Assembly (NCBI GenBank): GCA_963922205.1
Contig: CAWUHX010000041.1
Span: 806,001-870,000 of the forward strand
Reading direction: 5' to 3'
Length of the DNA: 64,000 nucleotides
Source: Romanomermis culicivorax
Taxonomy: Eukaryota > Nematoda > Enoplea > Mermithida > Mermithidae
Made by a program: the position numbers and the translations under genes. Shown here piece after piece: positions 19,901 to 57,175 of the stretch (position 1 is its first letter; every line of letters starts with the position of its first letter). The notes beneath the pieces are model-generated. The model did not search any database, was not told where the DNA came from, and was given only the letters and a program-made list of their open reading frames with translations.

Positions 19901-22900
19901 AATCAATGCTGAAAGTTCGAATTTTCTGAGGATTGTAACGTACCTGCTAATGCAGTACTGTAAATATATAGCATACTGTATGTGATAGTCATTTATTAAA
20001 TATTATTTCATTATCATAATTTATCGTCTCAAGGGTGTCTGGGATTCACACCCAAAAATTCCTCTAAAATTACGTGAAGTACTTTATTTTGATCCTTCCA
20101 CACCCCGGTAGCCACTATTGACCCAATTAAGATGCCCCAATTAATTTGCACAAACACCAGCTGGTCCTCTAGAACCTACACTAAACTACACATTCCACGG
20201 CTACCGTAATTCCTCATAAAAATCGTAAACAACACCTGCACACAGTAAAAAGTAGAAGCCCTGCCAGACAGTAGTCTCAAGTGCAACGGTAGCAACTGTC
20301 CCACAAAACATGTGTACACAGAGGAAACAGATTCAGAAGCATGCACAGAAGAAAGAGGTGTGGCTAAGCCCACCGTAGGAAGCGAGCAAGACACGAAAAG
20401 CATGCCGTACTAGAAAAGCATTGAAGGGCGTGACTAAATTAGCAAGAATAGTAAAGCAGGAAGCGGTGATTGGCGGAAGAAGATGGACAGAAGCAAGACC
20501 TCCCGTGACGCCCAGGGAGTGGCCAAAAACGTCGTATTTAAAGAAAAGCAAAGCGTGATTTTATTAATTCTTAATTAGTAGTTCTCAGTTTTCCGTTTTT
20601 GCGATTGTTTAGTTTTATTTGTAAGCATCGTTTTCGTTTTGCGAGTGAGATTTTATTTTCCGAAGCAGTTAAGCCGTGTTGTAAATTACTCACATTGTAA
20701 TTCTTATCCTCCACGAATCAAGCGATCGTCGAACCCACCCGTAATTGTATTATTGAATCGTCCCTCCGTATTACCCGTTCCGTTGTACGTCGTTTTGACC
20801 GTCCATTCAGGATAAAGTAAAGTGCTTCTCAAAACTGGTCGTTACATATTTTGGTGACCGTACCCTACCGTTAACCACTGGAACTCCCTGCCCCAATTAG
20901 GTGTATTCTTATCCGGGCATCCCGAAGCAGTAGATAATACAGTAGTAATCATTTCCTACAGTAAGACAGATATTCGTAGAAAGCAAACTGGTAATCCCCT
21001 CCAAGGAAACATTGAGCGATACATTTGTACTTATACAGCGTGAAGCAAAAAATTGAAGCATTTAAGCAGAAATCCCACCCTAAACCAAGAATGACCCACC
21101 AAACGCAAGATCATTTAGGAGAAATCGTTAGAGAACAGATAAATAATTTATTTTCTGAACATTTTCGTACTCTGCGCACACAATTGAACCAGAATACAGT
21201 AAACCCTACCCTAATTGACGATCTGAGAACAGCAAACATTTGTAATAACATGGCAAATAATTTTTACGCGAAACCTACAGTATTCAGGGGCGGCGTGACC
21301 CAACATTTGGGTGAATGGAATAAATGATTAGAACAATTCATGACACTCCAAGCCATGAAAGATACAGACATACAGTTAGAGTTGGCATGTTTAGAGATTC
21401 ATTTAGGAGGAGCCGTGTTAGCAAAATTGGAAAGTTTAGCCAATTCCGAAAACCCTCCCAACACATACGAGCAGTATAGAATGGCATTGCAGGCCTTTTT
21501 CCCAAATAATCGAGATAATGAGCTACATCAACAATTTTTACACGAGAGAAAACAAAAATAATCAGAAACAGTAACTGAATTCTTGTTTGATCTAGAACAC
21601 CTCGCAACCCTCCCCTACCCTAACTTTAACACAGACGCACGAGAAATGATGATAAAACCCCTTTTTGTAGAAGGCATGCAAAACGAAATCAGGGAAGCAA
21701 TTAAGTATAGATGGTTCGCGACCCTAAAAGAAATGTCAGACGAAGCAGCTTACATTGAACAGCAAATCCTTAGAAATGAGCTAAAGTTCAACACCCTTCC
21801 ATTTATACCCCCAAAACCCGAACCCATCTTTTCCCTAACCAAAAATACAGACCAACAGGAGCTTTTGCATCAATTAGAACAACAAGTAAAAGATTTACAG
21901 TTGCAGATCAAACAAAAATTTCAACCCCCACAACAGAGTAACTACAACAGTTTCAGTAACAACACTTTCAGCAGGAATAATGCTTACAGGAACAATACTA
22001 CTCCTAGGCAACCCACATGCTTTCAGTGTGCACAACTTGGACACGTAGCTCGCAATTGTAAATCAGTAAGCACCCAAAAATCATGTGAAATTTGTTTCGG
22101 TAATAATCACACTACACGTGATTATAAAAGCTGATGCATCCACTGCTCCCAAACAAGACATAGATCTGATAACTGCCTTTCGAAACCCTACTCAAATTTT
22201 CAATGTTTTCAATGCAACCAGAGAGGTCATACAAGTAGGTACTGTCCAAATCAACAAAGTCGTAATATTCAAAATTGCATTGAGTACAGGCAACCCCAAC
22301 CCCTAATGTACATTGATGACCCTGCATTCTACTCAACCTTACCCGCCATAACTAACGGCCCTCTGACTACTTTAGGAACTATAATGCCAACCACCCATCC
22401 CCGCAGTCAGGAGGAATACGTCCTCGACCTGGACATACCCGATTGGTGCGCCATGTCACCACCCCCGACACCCGAAAGTGATAAAATTGTAAAATCGCCA
22501 CCCACCATCCCTGCAGACTACAAAATCCCTCAAAAACAGACCACCAATTCGCTACCAACCCTGAAACACCCTCGAAAACTGGCCCTAACCTCTTGTCCCT
22601 TTTACATGGCCTCACCCCCAAACCCTACAGATTCCGCCCCCACCAAACACTATTGCAGACCCCCACGAGTAAGCAAACCCAAACCCCATCCCATGACTCA
22701 ACTTCTAAAGTTTTACAGACTGTTCACATTACAAACCGGCCACCCCCTCAGCTCAAAACCCCAAAACGCCAGCAACAGGCACACCAAACTGACCAGAATG
22801 GAAAAACACAATGCCCCGCCGCCTCCAATAAAATATTATGTTGGTCATTGTTTTGTATCTTTTTCTGTATAATAATCCCCACATCCTGTAGTGCCCAATT

Positions 22901-25900
22901 CTAGATCTGTGGAACCTCATTGAGTGGTCACTCGGTCAGCATATCAAAACTTGTGTCATGTATGCCCCCTTCCACAGTAGACAAACCAGTACAGACATTC
23001 GGAAAAATCTATATCCCCTCCACTAAGCCTCACATAACAGATGCATACAAATGCAGTGTTCGCAAATGGAAAATTTGTACTAATACCATATTTTTTGGCT
23101 CAAAAGGTATTGTTTTCGACTAAACGGAAATGCAAAATCTAAACCCCCACATTTGTAAGACAATCATTATAGACAAAAAACACAACAGTCAAAAATTATA
23201 CGAAACTCAACCAGGATTTTGGTCAACAAACAACTCCCTAAGCCTAGAATACACATGGTGTTGTACAAATCACTGTACGTCAGTCACTAACCTCATCATA
23301 GAAATAGGACAAATAGCATCTTGGAATGGAAAATCTATGACAGGTACATTAGGTGACCTGGGGTCATGCAAATAGACATCAGGCCATTGTGTAACAGCGG
23401 ATGGATCCATTATCTGGAATGAAACAGCATTTGGAAAGTTATGCCCTTTCAAATACAAAAATATACATCCCATAAAACTGACGCAAACCCACATGATAAT
23501 GATAGAGCTACAAGGTGCAATCTCCATCAAAAATACACTCTTTTCGAACCCCAACTGCCCAGAAATCCAAGACAGTGTCCTAACCGAACAGGGCATTGTT
23601 TTACAATTAGATAAAAGCACCCCACATCGTAACGCCTTTTTAACCCCAAAAACCAATGAAACTCATACTACACTTTACGATTTTGAGGATTTTGAACCCA
23701 TTGACGCAAAACTAAACTATCTAGCAGATTAAGTCCAGGAATTCGAGATCCAAAATTTCAAAAACATGTGGAGTGAACTATGCAGACAGGCACAGCGTCA
23801 CCTTGATTTAATATGGCAAATTTTGCCCCTTGATGCAACTCTTCGGGCACGTGCATTCCTACAGCGAACCAGCATAATAGCAGAATTTACAGGAGATGCC
23901 CTCACAGTCTGGCCCTGTGAGCAGGTAAACACATCCAAAGTCTTTTACAACCATAAAATCAATAACACATGCTACAAACTTTTACCCATTCTCATAGGAA
24001 CGGAACTCATGTTTTCGAACCCAGGAGGAAAGGATTTGACCCCTGTCTCACAAACCGTCAACTGCCACCACATGCATGTAGCCTTTTACAAACAGAATAA
24101 TACATGGGTCAGCGAAACAGGATCTCCGCATGTCACAAATCTACCTCTAGAAATCGTCTGGAACCAAAACTTTTCCCTCTTTCACTTAAACACACCTGCA
24201 ATTTTTCATGATCAACTCGCAACCATTTCAACCAACTTACTCTTTTTGAAACAATACATTCACAAAACCCACACACTCGAAAATGTCATTAAAAAACTCA
24301 TTAATTACACGGCCCAAATGTCTCTTAACTCAGATACAGTTTACAAAATGATCTCAGGCAGTGGCCAAGCAATCGGAAATACCCTCTCTGGCACCAGTCA
24401 AGGCATAGAACATGTAATAACTAGTACTACCCATAGCCTCACAGACGGATTAAATAATTTACTCAACGGACCCCTGCAAATTATTATCAACGTAGCCATT
24501 ATTACTGTAGTCATTGCAGGCATCTTTTACTCCTTTCTCATTCTTTGAAAATATTTCCCTTCCCCAAAGCATCATGTTACTAATGAACATGCGTACAAAA
24601 TGCCATCACACAACAGACATTTACATGAGACCATTCCCCCGTCATTTGGCCATGCTCTCTTAGAATTAGCTAATTGTCGCGGGGCCCAAACGCAGCAGAA
24701 ATACATCCTTGTCGATATTGATACCCCCAGAACTCCTGCAATCAAACTCATTAATCAAATCCACCAATCTGGATCAAATAAGCCACCCCAGAATGTACCT
24801 GAGAAACATACCCCTCACATTCCAATAACACTTAACGGCAAGCTTATTACAAAAGGCATGATTGACACTGGTGCAGTATACTCACTCATTGATTCGTGAA
24901 TCGTTCAAATCCTACAGCTAGACATGAAACCCCCGCTAGTCCAAGCCAAAGCAGCAAATAACCTTCTGATTCACTTTGTAGGAACCACTTTTGTTACAGT
25001 AACAGCCCAAACTATCCAGGAAACAATAATGGTCCATGTCCAAAACGACTGCACAGCAGATGTCCTTCTAGGCAAAAACTTTCTCTGTCAATTTTTGGAG
25101 TACACTATCAACAATCAGAAGTCTCAGGTCAAATTTGGCAAGGTCGTACTACCTTGTTATGGCCTAGAATATAGCCCCCTTTCGACCCATAGTGGAACCT
25201 ACTTAGATGAAAAATTAGAATTACCACCCCCTACAGTAACCGAATTTACTGTCCCCTTGCCCAAATCGTACCTACAAGTTAAACAGCTTGAATTTACTCC
25301 CAAACCCAAACAGAATACCAAAATTCATTTCGCAGCTTGTGTTTCTGAAAACCAAAACAGTCGCATACGCATATCAGTCTTAAACAGACAAGACACAATC
25401 CAAACTCTTTACCCTGGAACATGCATCGGTACAGCCTCATGTTACATCCCAAAACAAGATGCACTCGCTAAAGTAACCCCCTCGATGCAAAACCAGCCAA
25501 ACCGTTTTGATACATTCACATGGTTAAAAGAAAACGTTAACTTAACCTCCACTGACCTCACAGAAACAGAAAAAACCCAACTCCTATGCGCCCTATCAAA
25601 GTATCCTACGTTATACCCTAAATCCAAAATTGATGTAGGCAGAACCACCCTTGTTTCACATACAATTGACACCAATGGCTCCCAACCCGTACATAGACAC
25701 CTTTTTCTGACTGCCCCAAAAGAAAAGCAAATCATACAAGCAGAAGTTGAGCAACTCGCAGCAGCTGGTTTTATCAGCCAGAGTGACTCTCCATGGTGCA
25801 CCAATACAGTTTTAGTCCCCAAAAAAGATGGAGGTCATCATTTATGCATTGATTATAGAAGCCTCAATAAAGTAACAAAAAAAGATACCTATCTCTTGCC

Positions 25901-28900
25901 CCGCATAGACAAAATTCTAGATACCCTGCGTGGAATGAAATATTTTACGTCCCTTGACCAATCAAATGTCTACTATTCCATTCCCATTGCAGAAGCAGAC
26001 AGAGAAAAAACCGCCTTTAATTGCTCAGCCGGGCAATACCAGTTTAACTACCTCCCCTTTGGCCTCACCAACGCTCCAGCCACATTCCAAAGGTTGATGG
26101 ATGTTATCCTTCCGGGATTGCAATGGAACACATGCCTTGTCTATCTCAACGATGTTTTAGTCTTTGCAGGCCCAAATGTTGAAATGGTTAGACACTATTC
26201 TTGCCTGTTTCTCCCAAGCAGGCCTTAAACTAAACATACAAAAATGCAAATTCTGTCAGCCCCAAGTCCAATACTTAGGCCACGTCATTTCTCAGCAAGG
26301 CATTTCACCAGACCTCAATAAGGTACAGTCCATTTATGACATCCCCACCCCCAAAAGCTCGAAAGAAGTCAAGTCATTCCTTGGCCTACTCTCCTATTAT
26401 CACAGATTCATCGGGAACTGCTCCCAAATTTCTAGCCCACTCACAGCGTTACTCAAGAAGAATTCGGAATTTTCATGGGGGCCTGAACAGCAAAACGCAT
26501 TCACTAAACTAAAAGAATTGCTCATTCATGCCCCAATACTGCAGCATCTGGATTTCACAAAACCATTCATTTTGCTAACCGACGCCTCCAAACTTGGCAT
26601 CGGAGCCATTCTCAGCCAACTAGACACTAAAGGTCAGGATCGCCCCATCGCTTTTGGGAGCCGCACATTCAAACCTGCAGAAGGCAACTACCCAATAACT
26701 GAGTTGGAAACCCTTGCAGTAATTCAGTTTATCAAGTATTCCCACCCATACCTCTTCCAGCAACATGTTATTGTCCACACTGACCATACTGCAGTTTAGG
26801 CAGTCTTGCAGAAAGAAAACCCATCCCCTCCCATGCGCATTGGAGATTAGCTCTCTCTGGTATTCAGCTAGACATTCGACCTAAGAAAGGTACTGCTAAC
26901 TGCAACGCAGATGCTATTTCTCATTTCCCTTCAGAGACAGCGAAGCAATCCTTTGATATTGAGCAACTAGAAACCCATCCTGAGATATCAACCATCAATT
27001 CTATTCTTGAAGCCGAAGCCACTGAACAAGAAGAGCATTAGAAAAATTTTGCTGAACTTCAACGCACTGATGCAACTGTCAAAAATATTTTAGCAAAAAA
27101 CGCCCCCTTACTATGATCAAATTCACAGTGCATCAAAACATCCTCTTTCGTATAGTCAACAATTAGGCAAAACTATACATCCCCAAGTCACAAATCCAGC
27201 ATCTCATTGCCTCACATCATGACAGCAAATTCACAGGTCATTTCGCTGCCCGGAAAACTCTACACTTGCTCCGGCAAAAATATTTTTGGCCCCAAATGAG
27301 CCGTGATATCAAACGTTATTGCAAAACTTGCCACCCATGCCAGACACAAAAAGCCCTCTGGCACAAAACACATGCGAATCTTGTACTTATTCAGCCGACT
27401 GGCCCATTTGATAGAGTCGGTGTTGATTGCATGGGGCCGTCACCCCTCACTGGAGACGGCAACCGATTCATTGTCATCTTCATCGATGATTTCATCAAGT
27501 ATGTGGAGGCCTTCACGACACCTGATATCACTGCAGCCACTATCACCAAATTATTTGTAATCAAAATTGTTTGCCGTCATGGCTCCCCAAAAATCATCCA
27601 TTGTGATCGTGGCTCCGATTTTGTATCTGATCTCTTTTTACGGATCACCAGTTTATGCAATACTCAAAAAATTCATACCACCCCCTACCATCCCATTGCC
27701 AATGGGGAAGTCGAGCGTTGTAACCAAACCCTAGCCACCCCTATCCGCATGTACATCAATTCAAATCACACTGATTGGGATACCTATCTACCCTATGCCC
27801 TTTTTTCGATTAACATTCATAACAATGATAGCACTTCATATCCCCCATTTGAATTGCACCACAGTAGACAGGCTAATCTTCCATCAGACGCCACCTTAAA
27901 TTTTTTCCTCACGTCCTACATGGTTGATTTAGAGGATTATGCCCTTCATGTAAAATCACACTTTACAGAAGCACTCTCAACCGTGCAGAAAAATTTGCAA
28001 AAAGCCCAAGATCATTCCTCCAGTGTAACAAGCATGCTCAGAACATCCATTACAAGGCGGGTGATCTCATTCTCTACAGAAATCATTCATGTAAACAAGG
28101 GCTGACTCCCAAATTCCTCCCTCGCCAAAACAGGCCCTATACAGTTACAAATTTCATGTACCCCAACATTACACTCAAACACCCCCATAAGATTACCACA
28201 TTTACAGCTCATGTAAACGAGACAACCGCTTTCTACCCTCGAGAAGCACCTATTGAAACTGCCCCCACCCCTCCTCGCCCTCGAAACCCTTGAATGAGGA
28301 CGTTCAACTCCGGAAGGAGGGAAATGTAACGTACCTGCTAACGCAGTACTGTAAATATATAGCATACTGTATGTGATAGTCATTTATTAAATATTATTTC
28401 ATTTTCATAATTTATCAATTCAAGGGTGTCTGGAATTCACACCCAAACATTCCTGTAAAATTACGTGAAGTACTTTATTTTGATCCTTCCACACCCCGGT
28501 AGCCGCTATTGACCCAATTAAGACGACCCAATTAATTTGCACAAACCGCAGCTGGTCCCCTAGAACCTACACTAAACTACACATTCCACAGCTACCCTAA
28601 TTCCTCATGAAAATCGTAAACAACACCTGCACACAGTAAAAAGTAGAAGCCCTGCCAGACAGTAGTCTCAAGTGCAACAGTAGCGACGGTCCCACAAAAC
28701 ATGTGTACACAGAGGAAACAGATACAGAAGCATGCACAGAAGCACAGTGGTGTGGCTAAGCCCACCGTAGGAAGCAAGCAAGACACAAAAAGCATGCCAT
28801 ACTAGAAAAGCATTGAAGGGCGTGACTAAATTAGCAAGAATAGTAAAGCAGGAAGCAGTGATTGGTGGAAGAAGATGGACAGAAGCAAGACCTCGTGCGA

Positions 28901-31900
28901 CAGCCAGGGAGTGGCCAAAAACGTCGTATTTAAAGAAAAGCAAAGCATGATTTTATTAATTCTTAATTAGTAGTTCTCAGTTTTCGGTTTTTGCGATCGT
29001 TTAGTTTTATTTGCAAGCGTCGTTTTGGTTTTGCGAGTGAGATTTTATTTTCGGAAGCAGTTAAGCAGTGTTGTAAATCGCTCACATTGTAATTCCTATC
29101 ATCGACGAATGAAGCGATCGTCGAACCCGCCGGTAATCGTATTATTGAATCGTCCCCCAGTATTACCCGTTCCATTGTACGTTATTTCGACCATCCATTC
29201 AGGATAAAGTAAAGTGCTTCTCAAAACTGGTCGTTACAGGATCAATCAAAATCTTCTGGGGGTCCAGACTAGCGATGGACCGATGCATTGGCATGGGCCA
29301 ATTGTTGCATTTTTCTGCCATCAGCCATCGGCCGATGTTTTGAATAATCGGCCGATGGCCGATTGTTTGGCAACTTTGTTACTATGAATGCATATGCTTA
29401 TGCTTAAAAACAGATTGTTCACATATATATTTTACAGTTTCTTTAGTAAATACATATTTGCCCTGTGTTGCCATTGATGAACTAAATAACAAGAATTTGA
29501 CAAGCTATGAATGGGATATTTTAGCTACGGCAGTAAGAATATACTTTAATACATGTATAATGTATCAACACCTTAGATAATTATGTTTTGGCAGCTTGTA
29601 AATTTGTTAAAATCTTTTGCAGGAACTGTAAAAATCTATGAATCTAAAAACGCCTGTATTTCGGAAGAAATAGCTGAAGAAAAGTAAGCTAGATTTTGTG
29701 CCTACATTTTTTTGAAAAACGTAAATTAAAGAATCGTAGATTAAGAATTTTACGACACTCAATCCATATTTCAACTTTCCTGGATTGGGTTCATTAAAGG
29801 AGGAATTGTCGGGAAAAATGAATCAATATTTTTGTAGAAATGATAATCGAGCCCACTTTAAACCCATTGAAGACAATAGACTTCATGCTTTGGCATCTTT
29901 ACTATATCCTCGATTTAAAAAGGATGGATTGAAATTTGAAATATAACACATATCAATCATACAAATCAAAATTAAATAATTTAGGCTTTCTGTGATCCTC
30001 GAGCAGAAGACAAAGCTGAACTGGCTTTGGTTGGAATGATTGTTGATCAAAAACAACAAATTCAAAGCTTTTCAGAAAATATGGTTCAAAATTTTGAATG
30101 AATCTTCAATCTCATTTTCAAACTTTCTCAGTAAGCCACAATTAATACTAATGTAAATAATTCAAGCATTTACACAAAACTGACCACTTTCAGGCACTAT
30201 TTGGCCATTGCAAGTTCATCTGAAGATGAGCTGTAGTCCGAAAAATATGCAATGTCAACATTTGAGCAAGCAAAAGCCATTGTTTTGGAATAGATTACTA
30301 GAATAATGGAAGAAAAGTGCTGCAACAAAACCAGAATTAGCTAATGTGAGTCACAATAGTGTGCAGTTGAAAATAAGTTTCATTATGGAAAAAAATTTCT
30401 TTAGCTTGCCATGAAATTTTTATCAGCTCCAAGTGGGTCAGTAGCTAGTGAATGATCATTTTAAAAAGCAAAAGATGCTAGAAGTGGAAAAAGATCCCGT
30501 TTATTGCTGAGATTGGATTCAACAGTGCAAACTGGAAAACAAGCTGAAGTTGAAGAAGCTTCTAGTGAACTCAGCAATCAAAGTGAAGGTAGTACAACAG
30601 ATGCCTTTGTTGATGACAAATTGGATGAATGAAATGTTGTTAATTATTGAATGTTGAAAATATCAGTAGAACTTGGTGAATAATTCATAATAATTTCAAT
30701 TTATTACAGTGTAGCAACTTCAGGTTGCATTTTGTACATGTTACAGCCGATGCATCGGGAATCGGCCATCGGCCGATGCCATCGGTGACCCTGGACCATG
30801 CATCGGCATCGGCCGATGGCAAATTTTTGGCCATCGGTCCATCACTAGTCCAGACTCCCCCAAATCTCCCATGCGCATGTAATGGGTCATACCTCTACCA
30901 TACCCTTAATGCACAGGTGTGCATGACCTTCTTCTTTTTCTTGAACCTAATCTAGCGGCCTGTTTTTTCTGTTATTTGAACCTTGATCTTGTTTGTGAAT
31001 TGTGAACTATTGCCAACCCGATGGGTCACCTTCCATGTTATGGTTGGTAGCTATAACTGAAATAGTCACCAGGCCTGTAGCCATGAATTTTTTTCCGGTG
31101 AGGGGCACACATTTTTTTTCATTCATTTACTGTGAAATTGGCATTTCTGACTTGACTTTTTCCTGAAGAAAAAAATCAAAGGTCCCAGATTTGCCTGTTT
31201 TAACACTTGAAACATTTGGAGGGGCATGGCCATGGCATGAAAAAATCGTCAAACACCCTCCCCCCCCTGAACTTTTTTGAAGACAGTATTTTTGATGGTT
31301 TTTGATGCATATTTCGTAGGAAAGACATGCTTTTGGAGCTGTTTTGTTTTTCTGCTCGCCCACCCCTCCACCTCTCGATAAAAAGTCCGAGGACCCTCCC
31401 CCTGGAAAATTCTTGCCGTGCATGTCTGATGTAGATGTTATCCCAAACTTACCCTGAATTGGATTCAATTCGATTTGCAATTTTGCCAGAGTTCACCAAA
31501 AGTTTGGCTATTGCCTATTAATAAAATTTTAGATTTTAAGTAAATTTTCCTAGTAGGGTGAATTTACCTAACATCATGATTGTACAATAATTATGAATGA
31601 ATGGACAAAGAACTACAATGCAGTGTTACAAGGCAGTGTAAATTTTAAACTACTGGTTTGCAAAACTTTTCTACCTCCCTCGTGCATACGAGTACTATCT
31701 TTCAGCAATAATGGAAGAGGTAAATATGTGTCGATCGGTTCCCTCATTGATTCTCCTGGAAAATTTCATTTTTTGCAGAAGCAATCGTCGCATATACGTC
31801 AGCTTCAAGATGAACTCCAGTGTCAATATGAATTATCGAGAACTATACGTGACGCCGAGATTCAGTCCGTTCCCAGGGAAGAATATGATGCCTTACGGTT

Positions 31901-43340: not shown

Positions 43341-43555
43341 TAGTTAATCAGTCGCAAGCCTCAGGGCAGACTGATCAACTTTGGATTAGTGGTGTCAATA
43401 GTGTACAGAAAGAACTGATGGTGGAGATGAAACTTTGTCATCTACACAATTGTGCTATGGAAAAGGAGGAGAATGTGCCAGAGTTAGAATGCTGTGCTGA
43501 GTATGGCAGAAAAGTGACTTTAGAGGAACTGGAAATGTTAGCCTGATACCCTAGA

Positions 43556-44473
43556 ATGCAACCATTTCACATTAGGGTAACTGTGTGTTTCACAACTTCA
43601 AAGGTACCGATTGATATGGAAGCTCAGTGTTTGGTTATGTCAGAGTATTTCTTGAAAAAATCACTTGGACAGGTGTATACGGCATACCCTAAGATCCTGG
43701 AAGTCACTGTTGCCAATGGTAAAGTAGTGAGTGCACATGGTTACATTGAATTTCTAATGGATTTTGATTATGGACGTTTTCCAGTCAAGGTTATCATTAT
43801 ACCAGGGTTGGCAGGGGATTTGATTTTGGGAACAGACTTCCTAGGACATCTGGAAGTCAATACGGTAATAGATTTTGGAAAAGGTTTAATGACAATGATG
43901 GGTGTAAAGAAGAGTATTGATTTGTTAGCATCTGATCAGAAAGCTAGGATGCATAATCAGATGATAGCATTATCAAGTGAACAAAAACCTATGGAAGAGG
44001 ACAAAAGTTGGCCAATTCAGCAGCTGGAAGATGTAGTTCCTGTAGTAGTGTGTAATAGAATTTACATTCTACATGGAATGGATCAACTAGTGAAAGATAG
44101 ATTGTGGAATAAATCCTCAATTAATGGAATAAATGGAATCATCATTGAAGTGGATGATTCAGAAACAAGATTCATAATAGATGATACTATAGTTGATGGC
44201 TCAAAGGGAGACTTTATATTGATGATCTTGAATAATACAGGTGCAGGATGCCTGATAGAATCTAATCAAGATCTTGGCTACTATAACTCTGTATTTAGAC
44301 AAAAGTCAAGTGTGTCAGTTTTACAAGCGAAAAGCTATGGAGTAAATAGCCTCGAGGATGTTTTAGATGCCAATGAATCAAAATTCAGTGGGATTGTGTT
44401 TCTGGTAGCATTGTATAAAATGACCTCCAAAGCTACAATATCAGAGGAACAGAAAGAGATGGCAATATGTTAA
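43556..44473 (+). pseudogene. Retropepsin and linker of copy A
   Basis: 305 open codons. The protease loop VPIDMEAQCLVM keeps Asp but not the following T/S-G. LILGTDFLGHLEVNTVIDFG is the conserved second block. About 180 residues of linker to RT follow, matching copy B. Confidence 0.8.
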
Positions 44474-44550
44474 CTCATGATTGAAATATAGGTATGTATT
44501 TAGCCTACCTCATGATCTTCTGACAATAACTCGACATATAACTTTCAAAA

Positions 44551-45100
44551 TTGACACAGGTGATGCTAGTCCTGTGGGGAAGTATTACTACAGAGCTGCT
44601 ATTGAACATAGATAAGGGAGTCATAGAGCCATCCAGATTGCCTTGGGTGGCACCATTACTCCTAGTAGGGAAGAAAGATGGGTTGCTCAGGCCGGTTGTG
44701 GATTTTAGAGGCTTGAATGAGGTAATGAAAGACCATCAATATCCAATACCAAGAATGGATGATTCTCTGGACTGCCCTTTGAGAGCGAAGTTTTATATGA
44801 CTTTTGACCTCAAGTCTGGCTATGGGCAAGTGCCAATGGAAGGCAGTAAGAGAAGGACTGCTTTCTTATGCCAAGAAGAGTTGTTTCAGTTCAAAGTAAT
44901 GCCTTTTGGACTGAAAAATGCACCAACTGAGTTCGAGAGGATGATGGAAAGAATCCTATATCCTCATGTGTGGAAGATGTCGAGTATATATATATATGAT
45001 CTTATATTATTTTCAAATATGTTGGCGAAACATGTAAAGAGTCATAGATTCTCTGAGATAGGCCAAGCTTACACTTAAACCAGAAAAATGTGAGTTCCTT
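44551..45100 (+). pseudogene. Reverse transcriptase of copy A
   Basis: Blocks LPWVAPLLLVGKKDG, PVVDFRGLNEVM, IPRMDDSL, FDLKSGYGQVPM and MPFGLKNAPTEFERMM are present. The catalytic box is IYIYDLILF, where YIDD is expected, so it is inactive. Confidence 0.85.
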
Positions 45101-46779: not shown

Positions 46780-49740
46780 CTTTTTACCAGGCATACCAGA
46801 ATGTTCACAAGGCCATCTGGGTGTGCTACCTCTTGGTCTGGACGCCAATGGATTGAACACTCTGCGTCGGCTTGACTTTGTTGGCCTACCACCGAATCCA
46901 ATTTGACCTGCACCCAGGGGTTTTTTTTCCGTACAGTACGGATTTTTTTCAGGTGGTACGGAAAAATTTTATAGGAATTTCCGTACAGTACGGAACTATT
47001 TTTTAACTAACTTAACTATTTTTGCGCCATACGGAAATAAGTTAGGCGGTACGGAAATTTTTTCACTGGATTTCCGTACGGTACGGATCGATCGGTACGG
47101 AAAAAAAAGCCCTGCCTGCACCAGGGCCAAGGGTCTTTGGTTGCCGACCTTCCCCTGACCTTTCATTTCGTGCCATTTGCTGCATGCCAGGGACAGAACA
47201 TATATATGTCTATCTCTTGCCGGTTGCGTGTTTTGCTGTAAAGTCTTGGCCAGCTTCCCAACGTTACCCTCGCTAAAATTTTCTACAAAAATCTAAATAA
47301 TTTACATATTATGTACATTAGTACGGATATCCCAAAAAAAATCAAATCACGGGCTTTGTTGATTGAGCAAAGAAAAAAAAGAACAAAAAAAGAAAAAATG
47401 AGATCAAGTGAAAAAATAATTTTTGTACATGCCCGTTTGGCTATGCGAGGTATGAAAAACAAATAAAAAATTTAAAGCACACAACATTTAATAAAATTTT
47501 TTTTGTATTTTTGTGGTTTTGTATTTTTTCTGTATTTTGTGTTTTTTATCCAAAATAAATGTGAAAACAATATTTTTTGGGCCAAAAACCCTGCGGCTAA
47601 ATTACTGTTGCAGCCCGCCGCCTCCTTGCGCCCCTCTGTGCGCTCCTCTACAACCTCCGTAAGGCCTCTATACCCACTGGCCCTGCTGGCCACCTCTACC
47701 TTGCACCTGGGGCGCAGCACCTCTGCCACGCACTACTCCACCACCACCCTGGTTGGGGTTGTGGAACTGAAATCAGCCTTGGCCGCAGTTACCAGTTGTT
47801 TGCACCTTTCCTTGCATGATGGGTGCTAATTCCTGGCTTCCTTGGCCTTGACCTTGACCTTGAGGTCCGCGAACCTTCAAAGTTTTGCCAGTTTTTCTGT
47901 CTTGAGCTTTACTGAATTTAACAGAGCTTTGCAAGTCTGAACTGGCACTCCTTTTGGCTCCCATCACTCCGACCTGGTGATTGCTACTGAGCATCATGGA
48001 TCGAAAGGTCGTTTTGAATTCCAAGGGGGTATCCTGGCTATTATACACCCTCAACAGTTGGTTATTTGCCGCCACCATCACCCTGGCATAAATGTTGCCA
48101 ATATGCATCGGGGACAGCAGGGCGCATTACAACGAGGAATAGCATCATAACCAGGTACCTAACTGAGAAAAATAGCTCAGGCGCTCTCTCTCCTTTGAGC
48201 CACCTGGTGAGAAAGTCATAAATGACTCTTTCCCAGAGTTCCTCTGGTAAATTGGTCTGATCATAGAGAAAGGCTCTAAACTGCTGTTCATAGTCCCGGT
48301 AGATTTCCCTAATGGCATCATTTACCATGAGAAACACTCTTTCGGACTTAAATTGCTCAAAAGCAAAATAATTGGCTACTGCACTCGTAAAAAATGATAT
48401 GGGTCCAGATTTTCTGGTTTTTGGTTGATAGACATCCCAAAAGTCCAAGAGACTGTCCTTGAATTTTTCCGCAGTACTTCCAGCATTTTACTTGCCTGAG
48501 CAGCCTGTGCCTGCTTAATTTTGCTAGGACCAGCCACTTGTACTTGACTAGCTGCCACTTCTGGTTTTTGGTCCTTGCTGGGTTTCGCCTGACCTTTCGG
48601 TGTCAGTTTCCCTATCGCAAGGCCTATTGCGCCTGAAGTTTGGCTAGTTTTTGATGTACTATCTTGAGTTGCAGTTGCCAATGAAGATGTAACCACTGAT
48701 GGTGTTCCACTTGAAGTTGAAGTAATTTGGGATGTGGGGGTTGCAGTGGAGGTAATCATGGAACTTGAAGTCGATATGACGGACGAAGTCGCTGTCTTAC
48801 TGTCTTCCTCTTTCTGTTCCACTTTTGCACCCTTGCCACCCTTCTTCCTTTTTTCCTTCTCCTTCAATCTCATTTTCTTTTTCCTTTCAGCCATAAACAA
48901 TATTCATTCATCATGCCAACCTTTCTCCCTCATACTTGAATGACATTGGCCGAATATAACCCTGGAACACCTCCATCAGTGGAAAAATCTATTACCTCCT
49001 TGCTCTCCATCATTTCCGATTCGGGCATTTTGGCTATAGTTTCGTCAATGATGAGCTTGTCAGTGGTAATATCATCGTTTACTTTCATCGGCAATGATGG
49101 CTCTAATTTCTTTTCGACTGCAAGCATTGCATCCTCATCTTTCTGGAGTCCAAATTCGACTGCCATTTGGCAAACTTTTTCGTTGTAAATCACCATATTT
49201 TTCTTTAGCTCTTCCTCCATTTGTTCTCGTTGGAGTTGAATTCTTTCCCTCGCTCCCTCTTCCATCTTCAGAATTTCTTCTAATCCACATTGGTTAGCGA
49301 GTTCGGACTGCGTCTGAGCAGTCTGAGCTTCCATCTGTTCCATTGCCAGAACCGATTGCTCTTCCTGCTGCTCTTCTTCCGACATTTAAGTCAAGTCCTC
49401 ATTTAGCCTCTCATCTCGCTAATCATCTTCAGCCCCCAGTCCCACTGCATCGCTGAAAATTTTGCTATCCGACGTTTGAACTTCTTGGCCTGAAAGTATC
49501 AGAACTTCAACTACACTTATTCGAGCTTGCTTTTTGTCCTCACCTTTCAGACTATCAGTCTTGGTAGGACTAATCTTGCCAGCCAGTTTGGTGATAGTAC
49601 CTTCACCAGTGCTTTAACTATATGTGTGCTGAATTCCCGGTAAATCAGAGGCCAAGGGTCTATAGTCAAAGATCTTTTTAGGAAAGGATATACTATACTC
49701 CCTATTCTCAGCCAGTGACCTATAGACATCCCCAACCTTG
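46780..49740 (-). pseudogene. Unrecognised ORF block: coiled-coil, Lys/Ser-rich, helical and Gly/Arg-rich segments
   Basis: Read on the minus strand, frames change several times but the pieces follow each other. They are: a segment with KVGDVYRSLAENREYS; an acidic Glu/Gln coiled coil (49385-48930); a Lys-rich start and Ser/Thr-rich middle (48900-48376); a helical part with FEQFKSERVFLMVNDAIREI and LWERVIYDFLTRW (48448-48062); a basic region (48108-47773); and a Gly/Arg/Gln-rich tail continuing past the inserted MITE to about 46780 (GPGAGQ, RRRVFNPLASRPRGST). The basic and GR-rich end suggests nucleic-acid binding, like a second Gag or nucleocapsid, but I recognise no family. It lies between the exonuclease and the 3' LTR. 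Confidence 0.5.
46915..47114. mobile_element. 200-bp hAT-type MITE rich in CCGTACGG motifs
   Basis: Ends caggggttttttttccgtac and gtacggaaaaaaaagccctg are inverted. A perfect 8-bp duplication cctgcacc lies at 46907-46914 and 47115-47122. The inside holds several ccgtac(a/g)gtacgg palindromes. Inserted into the Gly/Arg-rich tail of the preceding ORF block. Confidence 0.92.
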
Positions 49741-49947
49741 TCGATTTTCCTTTGTCAGGTCAGTCCATATCTTAATGAAGGCGTCCTTTGTGCTAGCTCA
49801 ATGTAATAGAATCTAACATAATATAAGGATTTAGCTATAGCTCTTACTGTCCGTAGTTATCATGTCAGGACTACCAGGGATCGGCGGGCACATATCTGCA
49901 TTCTTCGACAATCTTAACCGAATCGGCATAAATCTGAATTGATTCAT

Positions 49948-51615
49948 TTAAACATATATTCCAGCACCTTTTCGGGGTACCTCATACTCTATGCTTGGGG
50001 GAGTCTTAGCTAACAGAAGATATTTGGTCAACCTATCGTCTGACCACCAAGCCATCGCCTTTATTTTGCCCGGTAGCTCTGGGCTGAATGATGTAATGAA
50101 CCTGTAACTGAACATTTCGGCCATTACCAAATCCAGTTCCTCTCTGCTATGGGGCCAGATCATGTGGAAGGCCAGTGGGACTAAAGTACAAGTGGCTTGC
50201 CATTCCGAGAACCACTTTTCCTCAAATGCTTTAGCATACTCCGCTAGCTGAGGCTTCCAATGATCTTTATCAAAATACCCCATTCCCAGATCAATGTCAA
50301 TTGTCACATGAACCAGATGATTTTTTAGGGCATCCAGTAGTGCTTGCTTTTTACGATCCTGAGGTAGTTTGATAACCTTTCTAGCTGTATCTATGAATGA
50401 AACCAAGGATGCTGGCTGTATAAGCCCCTGATACTGCTTTCCTTGTGCCATCTCCTCCACCAACTCCAGGCACAATTTATCTTTGGCCAACAAGCACTGC
50501 TCAGGCCTAATCATTTTGTCCTCATGGGGGTCACTTGCTTCATCATAGGAATTGGGTTTTAATTTTTTACCTTGAGGGTAAGCACCTGGATAGATGCCCC
50601 GTCACGGCAAATTTTCCTTCCCTTTCCTAGGGTTGCAAATGTCCCGATGGCAACAAAATTTAGGCCCTATTTCTTGCACTTGTCTGGCCCATCTTGCGTA
50701 CATTTCCTGGGGCATCATGTGGTAGGTCGCTTCGGGCTGCCTAAGCACAATATCAGGTGTACCCACAAAGTTACGTAGTTTATAATCCATAACTATATAT
50801 GAGTAAAACTGATAGAATTTATATGAGAGTATTTCAATTTGAGCCGGATCGACTATATCGTGAGGAAAGTTAGCGACCGCCCCACATGATTCAATCATGT
50901 ACCCATTGTGAAATGCCACCATAAAAATTGCCAGAGAAAAGTATGCATCCATACCAGTGTACTGCAGTATCTCTTCAGGGACTTTTTCTTTTGCCACACT
51001 TATCCTATTACGTAAAAGACTGAAATCAGTCTGGTGAGGACTGATATCAGCCAAATACATTTTGGCAAAGAGACCTTTCAACTTTAATGTTTCTGGGCAG
51101 ATTCCTGCCTTTCTGGATTTGGTAATCTTGCTTCCCATGATCTGCTTTGCTGTGACGCTTAGATCATAGTATCTTCCCAGATTTCCATCGTTGATACTAC
51201 ATCTAATCGTGTCAGACAAACCGCGACCATCGGTGCTTTTTCGGCATCCTCGGACATTAACAATTGAAACTATGTCCTCCAAAATGGCATAACCAACTAA
51301 CAACGTCGCTGAGCATAAAAAGTGCAACAAAATGTTCCACTCTTGCTCTTGCAGCAACGTCACATGGAGTATGAACGTTTTACCATTTAGATGAGCAAAT
51401 GAAACTAATCTAGCAAACTGGTTGCCTTTTTTGTTATGGATCCCCCACCTAAATAGTTTTTTAGCATCCTCACAGTTCACTTTCTCTACATCGAAACCAA
51501 CAATGTTCATGTCTAGGAAAGTGCTGCTTTTGAGATGTTTTACCATCCTTTCCACACTTCCCATGGGAACGGTTATTGGCTCAATTGGATTGGTCTGCCA
51601 GAACTCAAAAACCAC
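49948..51615 (-). pseudogene. DEDDy 3'-5' exonuclease ORF in an LTR retrotransposon
   Basis: One minus-strand frame, 556 codons, interrupted only by TGA at 50602-50604 (CGA by one transition). Counting from 51615, GFDVE gives Asp42 and Glu44 (motif I), LLVGYAILED gives Asp114 (motif II) and LQYTGMDAYFSL gives Tyr219 and Asp223 (motif III, Y-x3-D). All five catalytic residues of the RNase D/WRN/Exd2-type DEDDy family are present at normal spacing. The first in-frame ATG is at about 51564. The C-terminal about 220 residues (EKWFSEWQATCTL, PLAFHMIWPHSREELDLVM) are unknown. Predicted to trim 3' ends of RNA or single-stranded DNA. Similar ORF3 exonucleases are known from bdelloid rotifer LTR and Penelope-like elements. 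Confidence 0.8.
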
Positions 51616-51659
51616 TTCTCTAACTCGGCTATCCGCATCGCCCGACAGATGTTATAGTC

Positions 51660-52827
51660 TAAAAATCTAGGAGAAATTTAGGTTTTTGCTCCAACACACT
51701 CTATTACTCTTTTATGTGCATTTTCGAGATCCTTTATCAATTCTTTGTGTAATTTTACCCACTAATACCCTTTATTTTCGGGGCACTCTGACACCCTTTG
51801 TGCAAAACACTGTAAAAATTTGAAACTTTTGATATTTTTTGGAGCGGGAACTTGATATTTAGCCTTCTTGGCCGTTGGGTGTCCCTTTATCGAAACCAAG
51901 ATTGATAAGCAAAAATGTGTGAAATTAGCTGTTTTTCACTCTAACCCAACACATCTTTGCTACTCAATCAGCACTAATCCATTACAACCCTGATCTCCAC
52001 GACTAATTTCTGCTAATCCCCTTCTTTGCCGCATTGCGGGAACCAGAGGGAGCCGGAATGACAAAAACCTCCCCTAATCGGGTCACCTAATTCGACCGAA
52101 GTCTTTTTCAGATCACCTAGATTCGGCCTTGGCACCCCCTTCTACCTAATTTTTTGTATCTTTTTCTCAACTCCCAGTTGGTAGCTCGTCCGAGAAAGGG
52201 CACAGAAATAGTCTTGCAAAACACCCCTGATGAGTGTAACCTCCACTCATTATTCTACTTAACTATTTACAAAATAAAAAATTGGTTTCTTACCATCGAC
52301 CAGAAAATAACGGTTGTTTTGCCGTGGGTGTGGCCTCCCAAATTGGACCTCATCATCCGTCGCATTATACATACGCGTGCACTTGTTGTGCATACCCATT
52401 TTCGAAATATTGGGCCCATATTCTTGCACCCAAATGTTTTTAAAAATTTAAACCAAATTTGCAGCTGTAAAAAGTAGACAGATGTATAAAACATTTACAG
52501 TCTATTCCCTTGTGGCTGCAAATTGCCTTATGGAAGGATTCTTCTGTACAAAATATTCTCGAAAAAATTTGAAAATTCAGAGGAGATGCTGAACATGACT
52601 TTTGAAAAGTTTTGAATGATTTTTAGTTGCTAACCAAGAATGTGTAAAATAAAAAAAAATTTACGAAAACGGATCACTCACTTTAAAAGCTTTTCGCCCG
52701 CTTCATTAAAACACAATCCTATACATCAAAAAATATTAAAACGGATTTTAACCATTAGGAAACACATTTAGAATAAATATTTATTAAATACAAAAAAAAA
52801 ATACATGCAGATCGGCAGATTTTGCCA
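51660..52827 (-). other. Spacer between integrase and exonuclease ORF
   Basis: No long ORF on either strand. It may hold a promoter or splice signals for the downstream ORFs. No repeat of the element LTR is visible inside it. Confidence 0.45.
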
Positions 52828-53990
52828 CTATGAAACTACCGATGGCGCCACTCCATTCTCCGCTGATTGCGAAGGTACAGTAAGACCATAGGATGGATTT
52901 TTTGCATAGTTCTGCCATCTTGTAGTCTCATAGCGAAAAATTTTCAGCCTACTTGCTGAAACCTTTTGCTGTAGTAAAAGATTATCATAACATGCGATTG
53001 TTATCCCGTTATCCTCCAATCTTGAAACATCAGTGATAATGAAGGGTCCTTCCCAAGTTAAGCCCAATTTCTTGAGCTTATCAACTTTAAGAAGCACCCA
53101 ATCATTTTCTTTAAAAACCGAGGTTTTGATTTTCTTGCCAAAATATCTTTTGCTAGCTTCCGCTGCTTTCTGGATATTTTCGGCAATAATACCATAAAGC
53201 ATGGTTAAATGGTCAGTTAGGATGAATTTATATGCCTCATAATTCATAGGCATTACTATTTTAAGAGCTTTTGTAAAATTCATCCCAAGCTTTGCCTCAT
53301 GGCCCCGTAACAATGCAAATGGTGATGCCTTCGTCACTGCATGTGGGGTTGCATTATAAGCAAAGACCACTGATTTGAGATATCTTGGCCAGCTATCCGG
53401 TTCACCGATAGCTACTTTTCCCAGCTGTTTTATTTGAGTTTGGTTGAACCTCTCTACCATACCATTACCCTGAGGGTGGTAAGCAGTAGTGAAGATCTTC
53501 TTACACTCTAATAAATCAGACTGATTTCATTAAGTCTGAAGTAAAACAAGATCCATTGTCACTTAGGAGTTTCCTCGGTGTTCCATGTCTAAATATTATA
53601 GCTTCTAAGGACACATTCGCAATTGAGTTTGTTGATTGATCTGGGATCATTTCAGCTTCAACCCATTTTGTAAAATAGTCCTGAAAAACTATAACATAAG
53701 GCATTTTTTCTCCCATTGGCGAAATTCCTACTATATCTACAGATACAATGTCGAATGGACCTTGTGGCACAATGGGTATCCATGGAGGAATGGATGGCTT
53801 TCCTGCAGTTGCCATTTGACAGACAACACAGTATTTTATCCATTCCCTGACATCTTTTTCCATGCCAGGCCACCAATAATGCCCTTCATGACACTCAGAG
53901 TTCTTTTGAAACCCTAATGTGTCATTATTACAGCGCCATGATGCTGATGCAGCACAGAGTCCCTGAGGTTTGCGGGTATGACCAATTGAT
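52828..53990 (-). pseudogene. Integrase of the 13.8-kb element
   Basis: Zinc finger LHQHHGAV followed by CVVCQ; the catalytic core has VDIVGISPMG (Asp), LLSDNGSCFTSD (Asp) and MVERFNQTQ (Glu). The C-terminal module LGLTWEGPFIITDV is of GPY/F type. There is one stop and a frame change near the zinc finger, and a second shift between the second Asp and Glu. A normal Ty3-class integrase apart from decay. Confidence 0.9.
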
Positions 53991-54075
53991 CTTCACTTTC
54001 TGCCTCAGTTTCCCTATACAATACACCATTTTCTTCATAGAACCCACTGTGATACTTTGTGGTGCTATTTGCACC

Positions 54076-55101
54076 TTATCTATTCCAGATTGACTTTAAG
54101 CTTTCATCTGCTTTTTGCAGTTTGCTCATCAAGTCATCTGGGATCAGGCCAATAGATATCTCTTTATCACTTGATGTTTCTGGTTTACCAAACTCTTCAT
54201 CTTTTCGAGGGTATAACCACTGCACATTGTCTTGTTCCTTAGGAATCGCAGATTTATCAGTTTCCTGATTTTCTTTCTGCACCTTTTCCGAAACACGAGC
54301 TTTGCTTTGGGTTACCACTGCTTCTACTCCTTTAGAATGCTCTTTTTTGTCCTTAGGACTAATTCGAGCATCCTCTCCTTCTTCTGCATCCTTGTGGGAT
54401 TTATTCTCCTTGGAGATGTTGTTCCTTTCAGCCACCAAGGAAATTCGTTGTTATTCTTGTTCTTTTATTCCTTTGACATCAGAGGAAACAACATCCGATT
54501 TGAACATACTCTCCCACTTTGGTGGTGATTTCACCACATCCTTTGGCTCATCCTTTCTGGAGAGAAAGTCAGCCATAGCATTCTGTCTACCTGGCACATA
54601 TTCTAACTTGTGGTTGTATTGATTAATGATCGCATACCACTGTTTCAATTTGTCATTTGTTGTGGTATTCACTTTCATTGACAACTGTGGTCTGTGATCT
54701 GTCTTAATCAATACTTTATGCCCCAATAAATAGTGCCCATAGATTTTGAGGCCGTAGATAATGGCGAGGCAATCCCTTTTGGTAGCGCACCACTTTTTCT
54801 CATCCTCCTTTGGCACTTTGCTATTATATGCTCTGACCCACCGATCATCTCCAGATTCTTGATATAGAACAGCCCCTAATGCTGTTCCACTGGCATCAAT
54901 TTGCAGAATGAATTGGGCTGAGCCATCCATTACTGGGTACCTAAGAAATGGAACCAATACCAGTGCTTCTTTCAAAGCATTGAATGCTTTGTGATGATCC
55001 CCTGTGATGAGCCATTTATTCCTTTTCTTGGCCGTCAGCTTATACAAAGGCTCTGCATGCTTTGCCAGATGTGGTATAAATTTTTTACACCACTGGAGCA
55101 T
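54076..55101 (-). pseudogene. RNase H and acidic/lysine-rich linker
   Basis: LQIDASGTALGAVLYQES, KRDCLAIIYGLKIYGHYLLG, IKTDHRPQL and MADFLSRKDEP mark RNase H and the tether. About 120 residues of Lys/Glu-rich linker (KSHKDAEEGEDARISPKDKK) follow before integrase. Confidence 0.9.
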
Positions 55102-55199
55102 TCCAAGAAACCTTTACATACGCTTGACCGAGTTTGGGAATTCAAATTCTTTTACAGCTTGCACTTTTTTGTATCGGGTGAAATTCCATTAGAATCCAA

Positions 55200-55957
55200 A
55201 ATGTGACCAAAAAAATGAACCTTCTTTGGTAGGAATTCACAATTTTCCGGTTTAAGTGTAAGCTGGGCTCATCTCAGAGCATCCAGGACCAAATTTAAAT
55301 TTTCTATGTGTTCTTCGAACATATTCAAGAACACTATGATACTATCTATGTATACTAGACATATCTTCCACACATGACGATGCAGGATTCTTTCCATCAT
55401 CCTCTGGCTGGTGCATTTTTCAGTCCATAGGGGATTACCTTGAACTGAAACAACCCTTCTTGACATAAGAAAGCAGTCTTTTCTTTTCTGCCTTCTTCCA
55501 TTGGCACTCGCCAATAACCGGACTGGAGGTCAAGCACCGTATAAAATTTTGCTCTCCTGAGGCAGTCCAGATAATAATCCATTCTGGGTATTGTATATCG
55601 ATCATCCTTCATAACCTCGTTCAAGCCTCTAAAATCCACAACCCACCTGGGCGACCCATCTTTCTTCCCTACTAGGAATAATGGTGCCACCAAAGGCGAT
55701 CTGGATGGCTCTATGACTCCCTTATCCAGCATTTCCTGCACATGTTGTCTGATATATGGTCGTCGTTCAATGGCAGCTCTGTAGTGATGCTTCGCCACAG
55801 GACTAGCATCACCTGTATCAATTTTACTAGTTAGATGGGGAGTAGTTGTCAGAGGATCATGAGGTAGGCTAAGTACATCCTGGTATTTCACGAGTTGCCG
55901 TATCCCCATCTCATTCGGTTCTTCTGACACTGTAGCTTTAGAGGTCATTTCATACAA
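55200..55957 (-). pseudogene. Reverse transcriptase of the 13.8-kb element
   Basis: SPLVAPLFLVGKKDGSPRW, VVDFRGLNEVM, YTIPRMDYYLDCL, LDLQSGYWRVPM and YGLKNAPA, then a frame change to the catalytic strand VYIDSIIVF, where YIDD is expected. The second Asp is lost, so this copy is inactive. Confidence 0.9.
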
Positions 55958-55960
55958 TGC

Positions 55961-57169: not shown

Positions 57170-57175
57170 CTTTAC

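What the first reader, a model, noticed from the sequence alone, without database searches (positions are those of the whole stretch)
21091..28293. Retrovirus-like element with envelope between gag and pol
Seen: within matched LTRs and a GGAT target duplication, a Cys-rich, signal-peptide- and TM-bearing ORF (22485-24548) lies between a four-knuckle Gag and an intact-order protease/RT/RNase H/integrase; only 31 bp separate the integrase stop from the 3' LTR. Known: retroviruses, errantiviruses and other env-bearing LTR elements place env after integrase; I know of no family with gag-env-pol. Inferred: env was captured at the gag-pol junction and is an ancestral trait rather than a local rearrangement, because flanking frames stay colinear.
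Basis: partly seen in the sequence, partly recalled or inferred. Interest (0 to 1): 0.92.

Follow-up and report, generated by a model that had tools for sequence, protein, structure and literature searches.

The report
Nematode retroelement with envelope mid-polyprotein
A mosquito-parasitic roundworm carries hundreds of copies of a virus-like jumping gene whose cell-entry (envelope) protein sits in the middle of one giant protein, between the capsid and the copying enzymes, an unusual order reported before for a giant flatworm element.

Summary
The gene order is real. The element is 19934-29238: 913/914-bp LTRs (93.8% identical), GGAT duplication, gag, class III-type fusion glycoprotein (GP; Pfam PF24664), protease, RT, RNase H, integrase. 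This copy is old and broken. The assembly's size and scaffold number match Romanomermis culicivorax v2. One family-A GP probe has 866 matches. Many copies are open from gag through GP into pol as ONE frame (59 of 142 scored GP hits lie in frames of at least 2400 aa). Eight of eight testable family-A copies have 4-bp duplications and LTRs 99.6-100% identical: recent activity. GP is under purifying selection (dN/dS 0.07-0.15). GP directly precedes protease in 46 of 46 loci read, in about 11 families by my grouping. GP and protease trees agree on the main clades, so the order is ancestral there. A distant protein (37% GP identity) has gag-GP-protease in one ORF; two more have GP-protease-RT. Likely mechanism (inferred): a polyprotein threaded through the ER, Gag and Pol cytosolic, fusion protein lumenal.

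The parts
19930..19933 (.). target site duplication GGAT, left
19934..20846 (+). 5' LTR (913 bp, TGTAACG...CGTTACA)
20847..20865 (+). primer-binding-like stretch TATTTTGGTGACCGTACCC just after the LTR; TTTGGTGACCGTACC also follows the 5' LTR in the 8 copies whose LTR end was read; tRNA not identified
21091..22251 (+). gag (Retrotrans_gag above cut-off in family-A piece L064, four CCHC knuckles); broken in this copy
22252..22832 (+). gag-to-GP linker, fast evolving (dN/dS 0.26-0.29 among L004, L006, L007, measured together with the last knuckle)
22833..22901 (+). hydrophobic signal or anchor segment before the GP ectodomain (placed by reading the translation)
22902..24470 (+). GP ectodomain, class III fusion type (PF24664 best stretch about 23757-24164); contains in-frame stops here
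24471..24545 (+). C-terminal transmembrane segment of GP
24819..25091 (+). aspartic protease (mapped from piece L059; weak, E 0.15, in the window copy itself, which has a stop at 24897-24899)
25815..26297 (+). reverse transcriptase (frame-broken here)
26476..26867 (+). RNase H
27179..28293 (+). integrase: H2C2 zinc domain 27179-27355, rve core about 27446-27694, C-terminal part to stop 28291-28293 (frame-broken)
28312..28324 (+). polypurine tract GGAAGGAGGGAAA
28325..29238 (+). 3' LTR (914 bp)
29239..29242 (.). target site duplication GGAT, right

Best explanation
The window holds an old, inactivated copy of a large and recently active clade of Ty3/Gypsy (Metaviridae-like) elements in Romanomermis culicivorax. 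[quoted passage not shown] Shown by sequence: one continuous frame Gag - hydrophobic signal/anchor - Cys-rich ectodomain - TM - protease - RT - RNase H - integrase in long-frame copies; recent insertions; purifying selection on GP; GP and protease trees that agree on the main clades across families. Inferred: the full-length RNA is translated into one Gag-Env-Pol polyprotein; the internal signal threads the ectodomain into the ER lumen, leaving Gag and Pol in the cytosol, much as flavivirus and alphavirus polyproteins alternate capsid and envelope (recalled comparison); signal peptidase frees the ectodomain's N-terminus; the viral protease frees Pol and Gag; particles assemble on the membrane and enter cells through GP. 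The order arose once before these families split, by capture of a GP gene at the gag-pol boundary.
Against: No RNA or protein data were available, so translation as one polyprotein, ER threading and cleavage are untested. No furin-type site or 2A motif was found, so separation would depend on signal peptidase and the viral protease. The hydrophobic segment before GP in family A stays below the threshold of 1.7 used. The structure model is of middling confidence (pLDDT 66.9, pTM 0.48). 83 of the 142 scored GP hits lie in frames under 2400 aa. The sampled pieces of families C and D have stops or frame changes, which may be decay or a different expression strategy. P0004's RT is no closer to family A (34%) than another Gypsy of the window is (36%), so one origin for the outside elements is not shown, and the two trees place P0004-P0006 differently. 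In the protease set the L070 row was cut too long (557 aa).
Confidence: 0.8

Rival explanations
1. Same architecture in DNA, but expression by splicing: GP is removed as an in-frame intron to make Gag-Pol, and/or GP is made from a spliced subgenomic RNA, so the long frame is only the unspliced genome.
For: Retroviruses make Env from spliced RNA, and nematode Cer1 uses a spliced mRNA for its third protein (PMC10309623, passages). A 1:1:1 Gag:Env:Pol ratio would be unusual.
Against: The frame stays open through the gag-GP linker in long-frame copies and in P0005. A spliced-out unit or a separately made Env would not need the upstream junction to stay in frame. Splicing was not tested.
Confidence: 0.25
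2. A rearranged or recombined single copy, or an assembly artefact, put env between gag and pol.
For: The window copy is broken in gag, GP and pol.
Against: 866 probe matches, 46 of 46 loci with GP before protease, 4-bp duplications in 8 of 8 testable copies, the same order in proteins of other sources.
Confidence: 0.01
3. Member of the planarian Burro lineage: one ancient clade of gag-env-pol Gypsy elements, of which Burro is a gigantic derivative.
For: Burro has gag with CCHC knuckles, env in frame between gag and protease, and env hits to arthropod and fish mononegavirus glycoproteins (PMC6431247, section 7 read).
Against: Burro is far larger (4873-aa ORF1), has extra domains (MATH, BIR, ankyrin, BCL2, dUTPase), and its env was also matched to gypsy Env; its sequence was not in hand, so homology was not tested.
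Confidence: 0.4
4. GP was captured at the same place several times independently, or swapped repeatedly between elements.
For: The outside proteins P0004-P0006 conflict between the GP and protease trees, and the D, L074, L075 trio differs in order. Class III glycoproteins are reported in other gypsy elements and in BEL/Pao (PMC13172572, passages).
Against: The main clades in R. culicivorax agree between GP and protease trees.
Confidence: 0.2

Closest known systems
Burro (planarian giant Gypsy-like LTR retrotransposons; Arkhipova and Yushenova 2019, PMC6431247, section 7 read)
   Same: Env in frame between gag and pol inside one polyprotein; Gypsy-like element; thousands of copies; env hits to mononegavirus glycoproteins.
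   Different: Over 30 kb with many host-like domains; this element is 9.3 kb with gag-GP-pol only; sequence relationship untested.
Gypsy elements with type III fusion glycoproteins in mosquitoes (PMC13172572, passages; Chary and Hayashi, eLife 108449, cited there and not held)
   Same: Ty3/Gypsy elements whose Env is of the class III type shared with RNA viruses and BEL/Pao.
   Different: [quoted passage not shown] none mentions env between gag and pol or one single frame.
Anakin (BEL/Pao with chuvirus glycoprotein in mosquitoes; PMC7642597, passages)
   Same: LTR element that captured a chuvirus-type class III glycoprotein.
   Different: BEL/Pao Pol, not Gypsy. The passages say other BEL/Pao envelopes lie downstream of the polyprotein; Anakin's own position was not stated in them. 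P0007 here (weak DUF5641 match, E 0.015, then GP) may be of the env-last kind.
Atlas virus (hookworm belpaovirus, PMC9094657, passages)
   Same: Nematode LTR virus with one single polyprotein including Env.
   Different: Order Gag-Pol-Env; BEL/Pao; phlebovirus-like class II Env.
Errantivirus (gypsy of Drosophila and relatives)
   Same: Env-bearing Ty3/Gypsy elements.
   Different: env is a separate ORF in gypsy-like elements other than Burro (PMC6431247); its place after pol is general knowledge; a likely baculovirus origin of its env is stated in PMC12440569 (parts 1-3 of 5 read).
Jingchuvirales GP-derived endogenous elements (PMC10084718, passages)
   Same: Chuvirus-type glycoproteins near LTR elements.
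   Different: That 2023 paper found no clear capture by Gypsy elements; here GP is inside a Gypsy reading frame.

Membership tests
Ty3/Gypsy (Metaviridae) | Pol order PR-RT-RH-IN | tested here: met
Ty3/Gypsy (Metaviridae) | Pol closest to Ty3 rather than to retroviruses or BEL/Pao | tested here: met
   Ty3-G best solved relative, E 3.2e-124, ahead of the other RTs shown; the PDB holds few retroelements, so this is no full tree
Ty3/Gypsy (Metaviridae) | LTRs with TG..CA ends and 4-6 bp target duplications | tested here: met
   window copy plus 8 of 8 testable family-A copies, 4 bp
Errantivirus | env as separate ORF downstream of pol | tested here: not met
   GP upstream of protease in 46 of 46 loci; 3' LTR 31 bp after the last stop in the window
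Errantivirus | baculovirus F-type Env (classical view; PMC13172572 passages challenge it as a general rule) | tested here: not met
   GP is class III type by Pfam and predicted fold
Monjiviricetes-type class III fusion glycoprotein | PF24664 match above cut-off | tested here: met
   46.7 bits from the window piece, 66.8 bits from L004, 46-64 bits in 8 of 8 other-family loci, cut-off 27
Monjiviricetes-type class III fusion glycoprotein | class III fold | tested here: met
   [not shown]
Monjiviricetes-type class III fusion glycoprotein | membrane fusion activity | not testable with these tools
   needs bench work
Anakin (BEL/Pao + chuvirus GP) | BEL/Pao Pol | tested here: not met
   Pol is Ty3/Gypsy type
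Burro | env in frame between gag and pol | tested here: met
Burro | giant size with accessory MATH/BIR/BCL2/ankyrin domains | tested here: not met
   9.3-kb element; Pfam on the natural gag and pol pieces of families A and B shows none
Burro | sequence homology of GP and Pol | not tested
   no Burro sequence in hand
Troyka | CG..CG termini and 3-bp duplications, no env | tested here: not met
   TG..CA, 4 bp, GP present; definition from PMC12440569

The most novel reading that the evidence does not exclude
A deep animal clade of Ty3/Gypsy-derived retroviruses expresses Env inside a Gag-Env-Pol polyprotein threaded through the ER, so that virion assembly is tied to membrane topology as in flavi- and alphaviruses. 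It includes these nematode families, the elements behind P0004-P0006 (hosts unknown), and possibly Burro, and has not been recognised as one group of env-in-the-middle retroviruses.
Probability: 0.4. Interest if true: 0.8.

Novelty: new variant of a known kind. Interest (0 to 1): 0.6.

Why it matters
Env-last order is usual for retrovirus-like elements. Here env-in-the-middle is an abundant, selected and recently active arrangement, with about 11 families (my grouping) in one genome and relatives in other sources. It gives a compact system for asking how a retroelement could balance Gag, Env and Pol without a separate env ORF, and how an envelope can be threaded through a membrane from inside a Gag-Pol reading frame.

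Tried and rejected
Rejected: local rearrangement or artefact. Rejected: Troyka (termini, duplication size). I suspected that families with shorter frames (C293, C169, C445, C72) lack env; their pieces carry GP in the usual place. Led nowhere: window GP piece against the protein collection (none of 477 candidates) and phage records; Pol piece, P0006 and alignment A2 against viral or prokaryote contigs (no relatives by tblastn); GP against PDB sequences (none; one chance-level row, E 0.68); 2A and furin motifs (none in the eight sequences scanned). Families other than gB are missing from the rows shown; that is no evidence against them. The tRNA primer was not identified. The host was not checked with a mitochondrial gene (unanswered, not repeated). 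Chary and Hayashi, eLife 108449, on envelope-carrying retrotransposons, is not held and may describe related elements. So I do not claim that the nematode clade is unreported; I only say that the listings of those ten searches did not show it.

Rows dropped or weak: the B_L031 comparisons are unreliable (that copy is broken and its frame offset was guessed); L034 is decayed. In one search C19 and C95 lacked a complete 3' LTR and were left out of the 8. Nineteen of 95 RT hits were not resolved. In one search a tblastn protease match (1e-5) was found in 5 of 8 loci; the other three (L071, L072, L077) were settled by Pfam, where 6 of 8 pass a curated cut-off for an aspartic protease model; L074 and L075 do not and rest on 54-60% identity to family D's protease region, itself weak in Pfam. 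L071 has a stop inside GP.
Full report
The element. Two LTRs, 19934-20846 and 28325-29238, agree at 856 of 913 aligned positions and are flanked by GGAT. A PBS-like stretch follows the 5' LTR and a polypurine tract precedes the 3' LTR. Between them, in order, are gag with zinc knuckles, a glycoprotein piece that scores on Pfam PF24664 (Monjiviricetes_fusion, E 1.6e-12), a weak protease piece, RT, RNase H and integrase.

Host. The assembly in which the window lies has 359,112,060 bases in 595 contigs. This equals the 359.1 Mb and 595 scaffolds given for Romanomermis culicivorax v2 (PMC10879605, passages). The identification rests on these numbers and on protein P0001, named R. culicivorax by its source (52% GP identity).

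Other copies. The GP piece finds 142 scored hits (3288 first-look candidates), 141 without stops inside; 59 of 142 lie in stop-to-stop frames of at least 2400 aa and 28 in frames of 2484-2486 aa. L004, L006 and L007 (frames of 2481, 2222 and 2394 aa) are open over the 3.8 kb read, from the last zinc knuckle through signal segment, ectodomain, TM and protease into RT. A 30-bp GP probe has 866 matches with up to 3 mismatches and none in the reversed control. Of ten copies read at both ends, eight have complete LTR pairs; all eight have 4-bp duplications and LTR identity of 99.56-100%. One copy each of families B and C also has a 4-bp duplication and LTR identity of 100% and 99.5%. The window copy is thus an old relic of a family that moved recently.

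Is the order general? GP-selected loci: protease region directly downstream in 38 of 38. RT-selected loci of family A: 55 of 95 have a GP hit at constant spacing, 21 of the other 40 lie in frames of at least 2000 aa, 19 are undetermined. RT-selected loci of other families, chosen to include those with short frames: GP before protease in 8 of 8; PF24664 is over its cut-off in 8 of 8, an aspartic protease model in 6 of 8, and the other two (L074, L075) rest on similarity to family D. L071 has a stop inside GP. By my grouping these make about 11 families (A, B, C, D, L070, L071/L077, L072, L073, L074, L075, L076). Upstream of GP, Retrotrans_gag and four zinc knuckles were found in A and B, and three or one knuckles in the C and D pieces; in the L070-L077 families gag was not fetched. 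Trees from the GP core and from the protease region (15 taxa) share eight splits, including {A,B}, {C,L070,L073,L076}, their union, {D,L074,L075} and {L071,L072,L077}; conflicts at 0.8 or more concern the D trio and the place of P0004-P0006.

Selection. Among L004, L006 and L007 GP has dN/dS 0.07-0.11, and 0.13-0.15 against the window copy. The gag linker has 0.26-0.29 and the protease region 0.03-0.15. GP is therefore a maintained part of the element.

Elsewhere. P0005 (1500 aa, 37% identity in GP) has Retrotrans_gag (E 0.0017, below cut-off), a CCHC-like knuckle seen by eye, a hydrophobic segment, GP, TM and protease (E 1.2e-05, just below cut-off) in one ORF; P0006 and P0004 have GP, protease and RT start in one ORF, over cut-off. 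P0007 has a weak match to DUF5641 (recalled as a BEL/Pao integrase-end domain) before GP, which would be the env-last order. P0002's and P0004's sources call their contigs bacterial MAGs, which I take for animal contamination (inference).

Known or not. The arrangement itself is known: Burro of planarians has env in frame between gag and pol (PMC6431247). A class III glycoprotein in a Gypsy element is not new either: a 2026 paper on insects says that gypsy elements, BEL/Pao and RNA viruses share type III fusion glycoproteins (PMC13172572, passages), although a 2023 survey found no clear chuvirus-type capture by Gypsy (PMC10084718, passages). What I did not see in the held library is the combination: a compact 9.3-kb form, its abundance and recent activity in a nematode, the family-level evidence that the order is ancestral, and a protein from another source with the same single-ORF order. 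The most relevant survey (eLife 108449) could not be read.

Mechanism. Shown: frame continuity, domain order, hydrophobic segments on both sides of the ectodomain, selection, recent mobility. Inferred: polyprotein translation, ER threading with Gag and Pol cytosolic, signal-peptidase and viral-protease cuts, GP-mediated cell entry. The main rival is splicing, which only RNA data can settle.

Going back over the calls I added (protease in the eight loci; class III Env in other gypsy elements).

Noticed in passing
G000 C180 (GP hits at 404, 8769, 17134), C2 (2953716, 2962117), C26 (1370707, 1379098), C293 (RT hits at 389601, 397058, 404511): Likely tandem proviral arrays: family-A-like copies repeat every 8365-8401 bp, close to one LTR plus one internal region (window: 8392), and another family every 7453-7457 bp, as if neighbours share an LTR.
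   Followed up: no
window 48376-57175 (-) and 43547-45078 (+): Two pieces of a different Gypsy-like element (protease, RT, integrase-like ORFs). The minus-strand one is followed by ORFs at 49948-51651 with no Pfam match; the one at 50602-51651 has no PDB sequence match either, and by eye resembles a 3'-5' exonuclease, an ORF type reported in rotifer LTR elements (PMC5408684, passages).
   Followed up: partly
G000 C6:1966875, C82:1114304, C85:1039133, C124:768764, C172:257516, C201:350013, C254:99187: Seven listed copies of one related family share a 3018-aa open frame and the same RT score, suggesting a very recent burst; the frame is about 500 aa longer than family A's and the extra part was not examined.
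   Followed up: partly
P0007: A protein with a weak BEL/Pao-integrase-end match followed by a related GP: the same glycoprotein family may sit in two gene orders in two element classes.
   Followed up: partly
L061, L066: Family C has a stop between the gag core and the zinc knuckles and a frame overlap between RNase H and integrase in the copies read; decay or recoding not distinguished.
   Followed up: no
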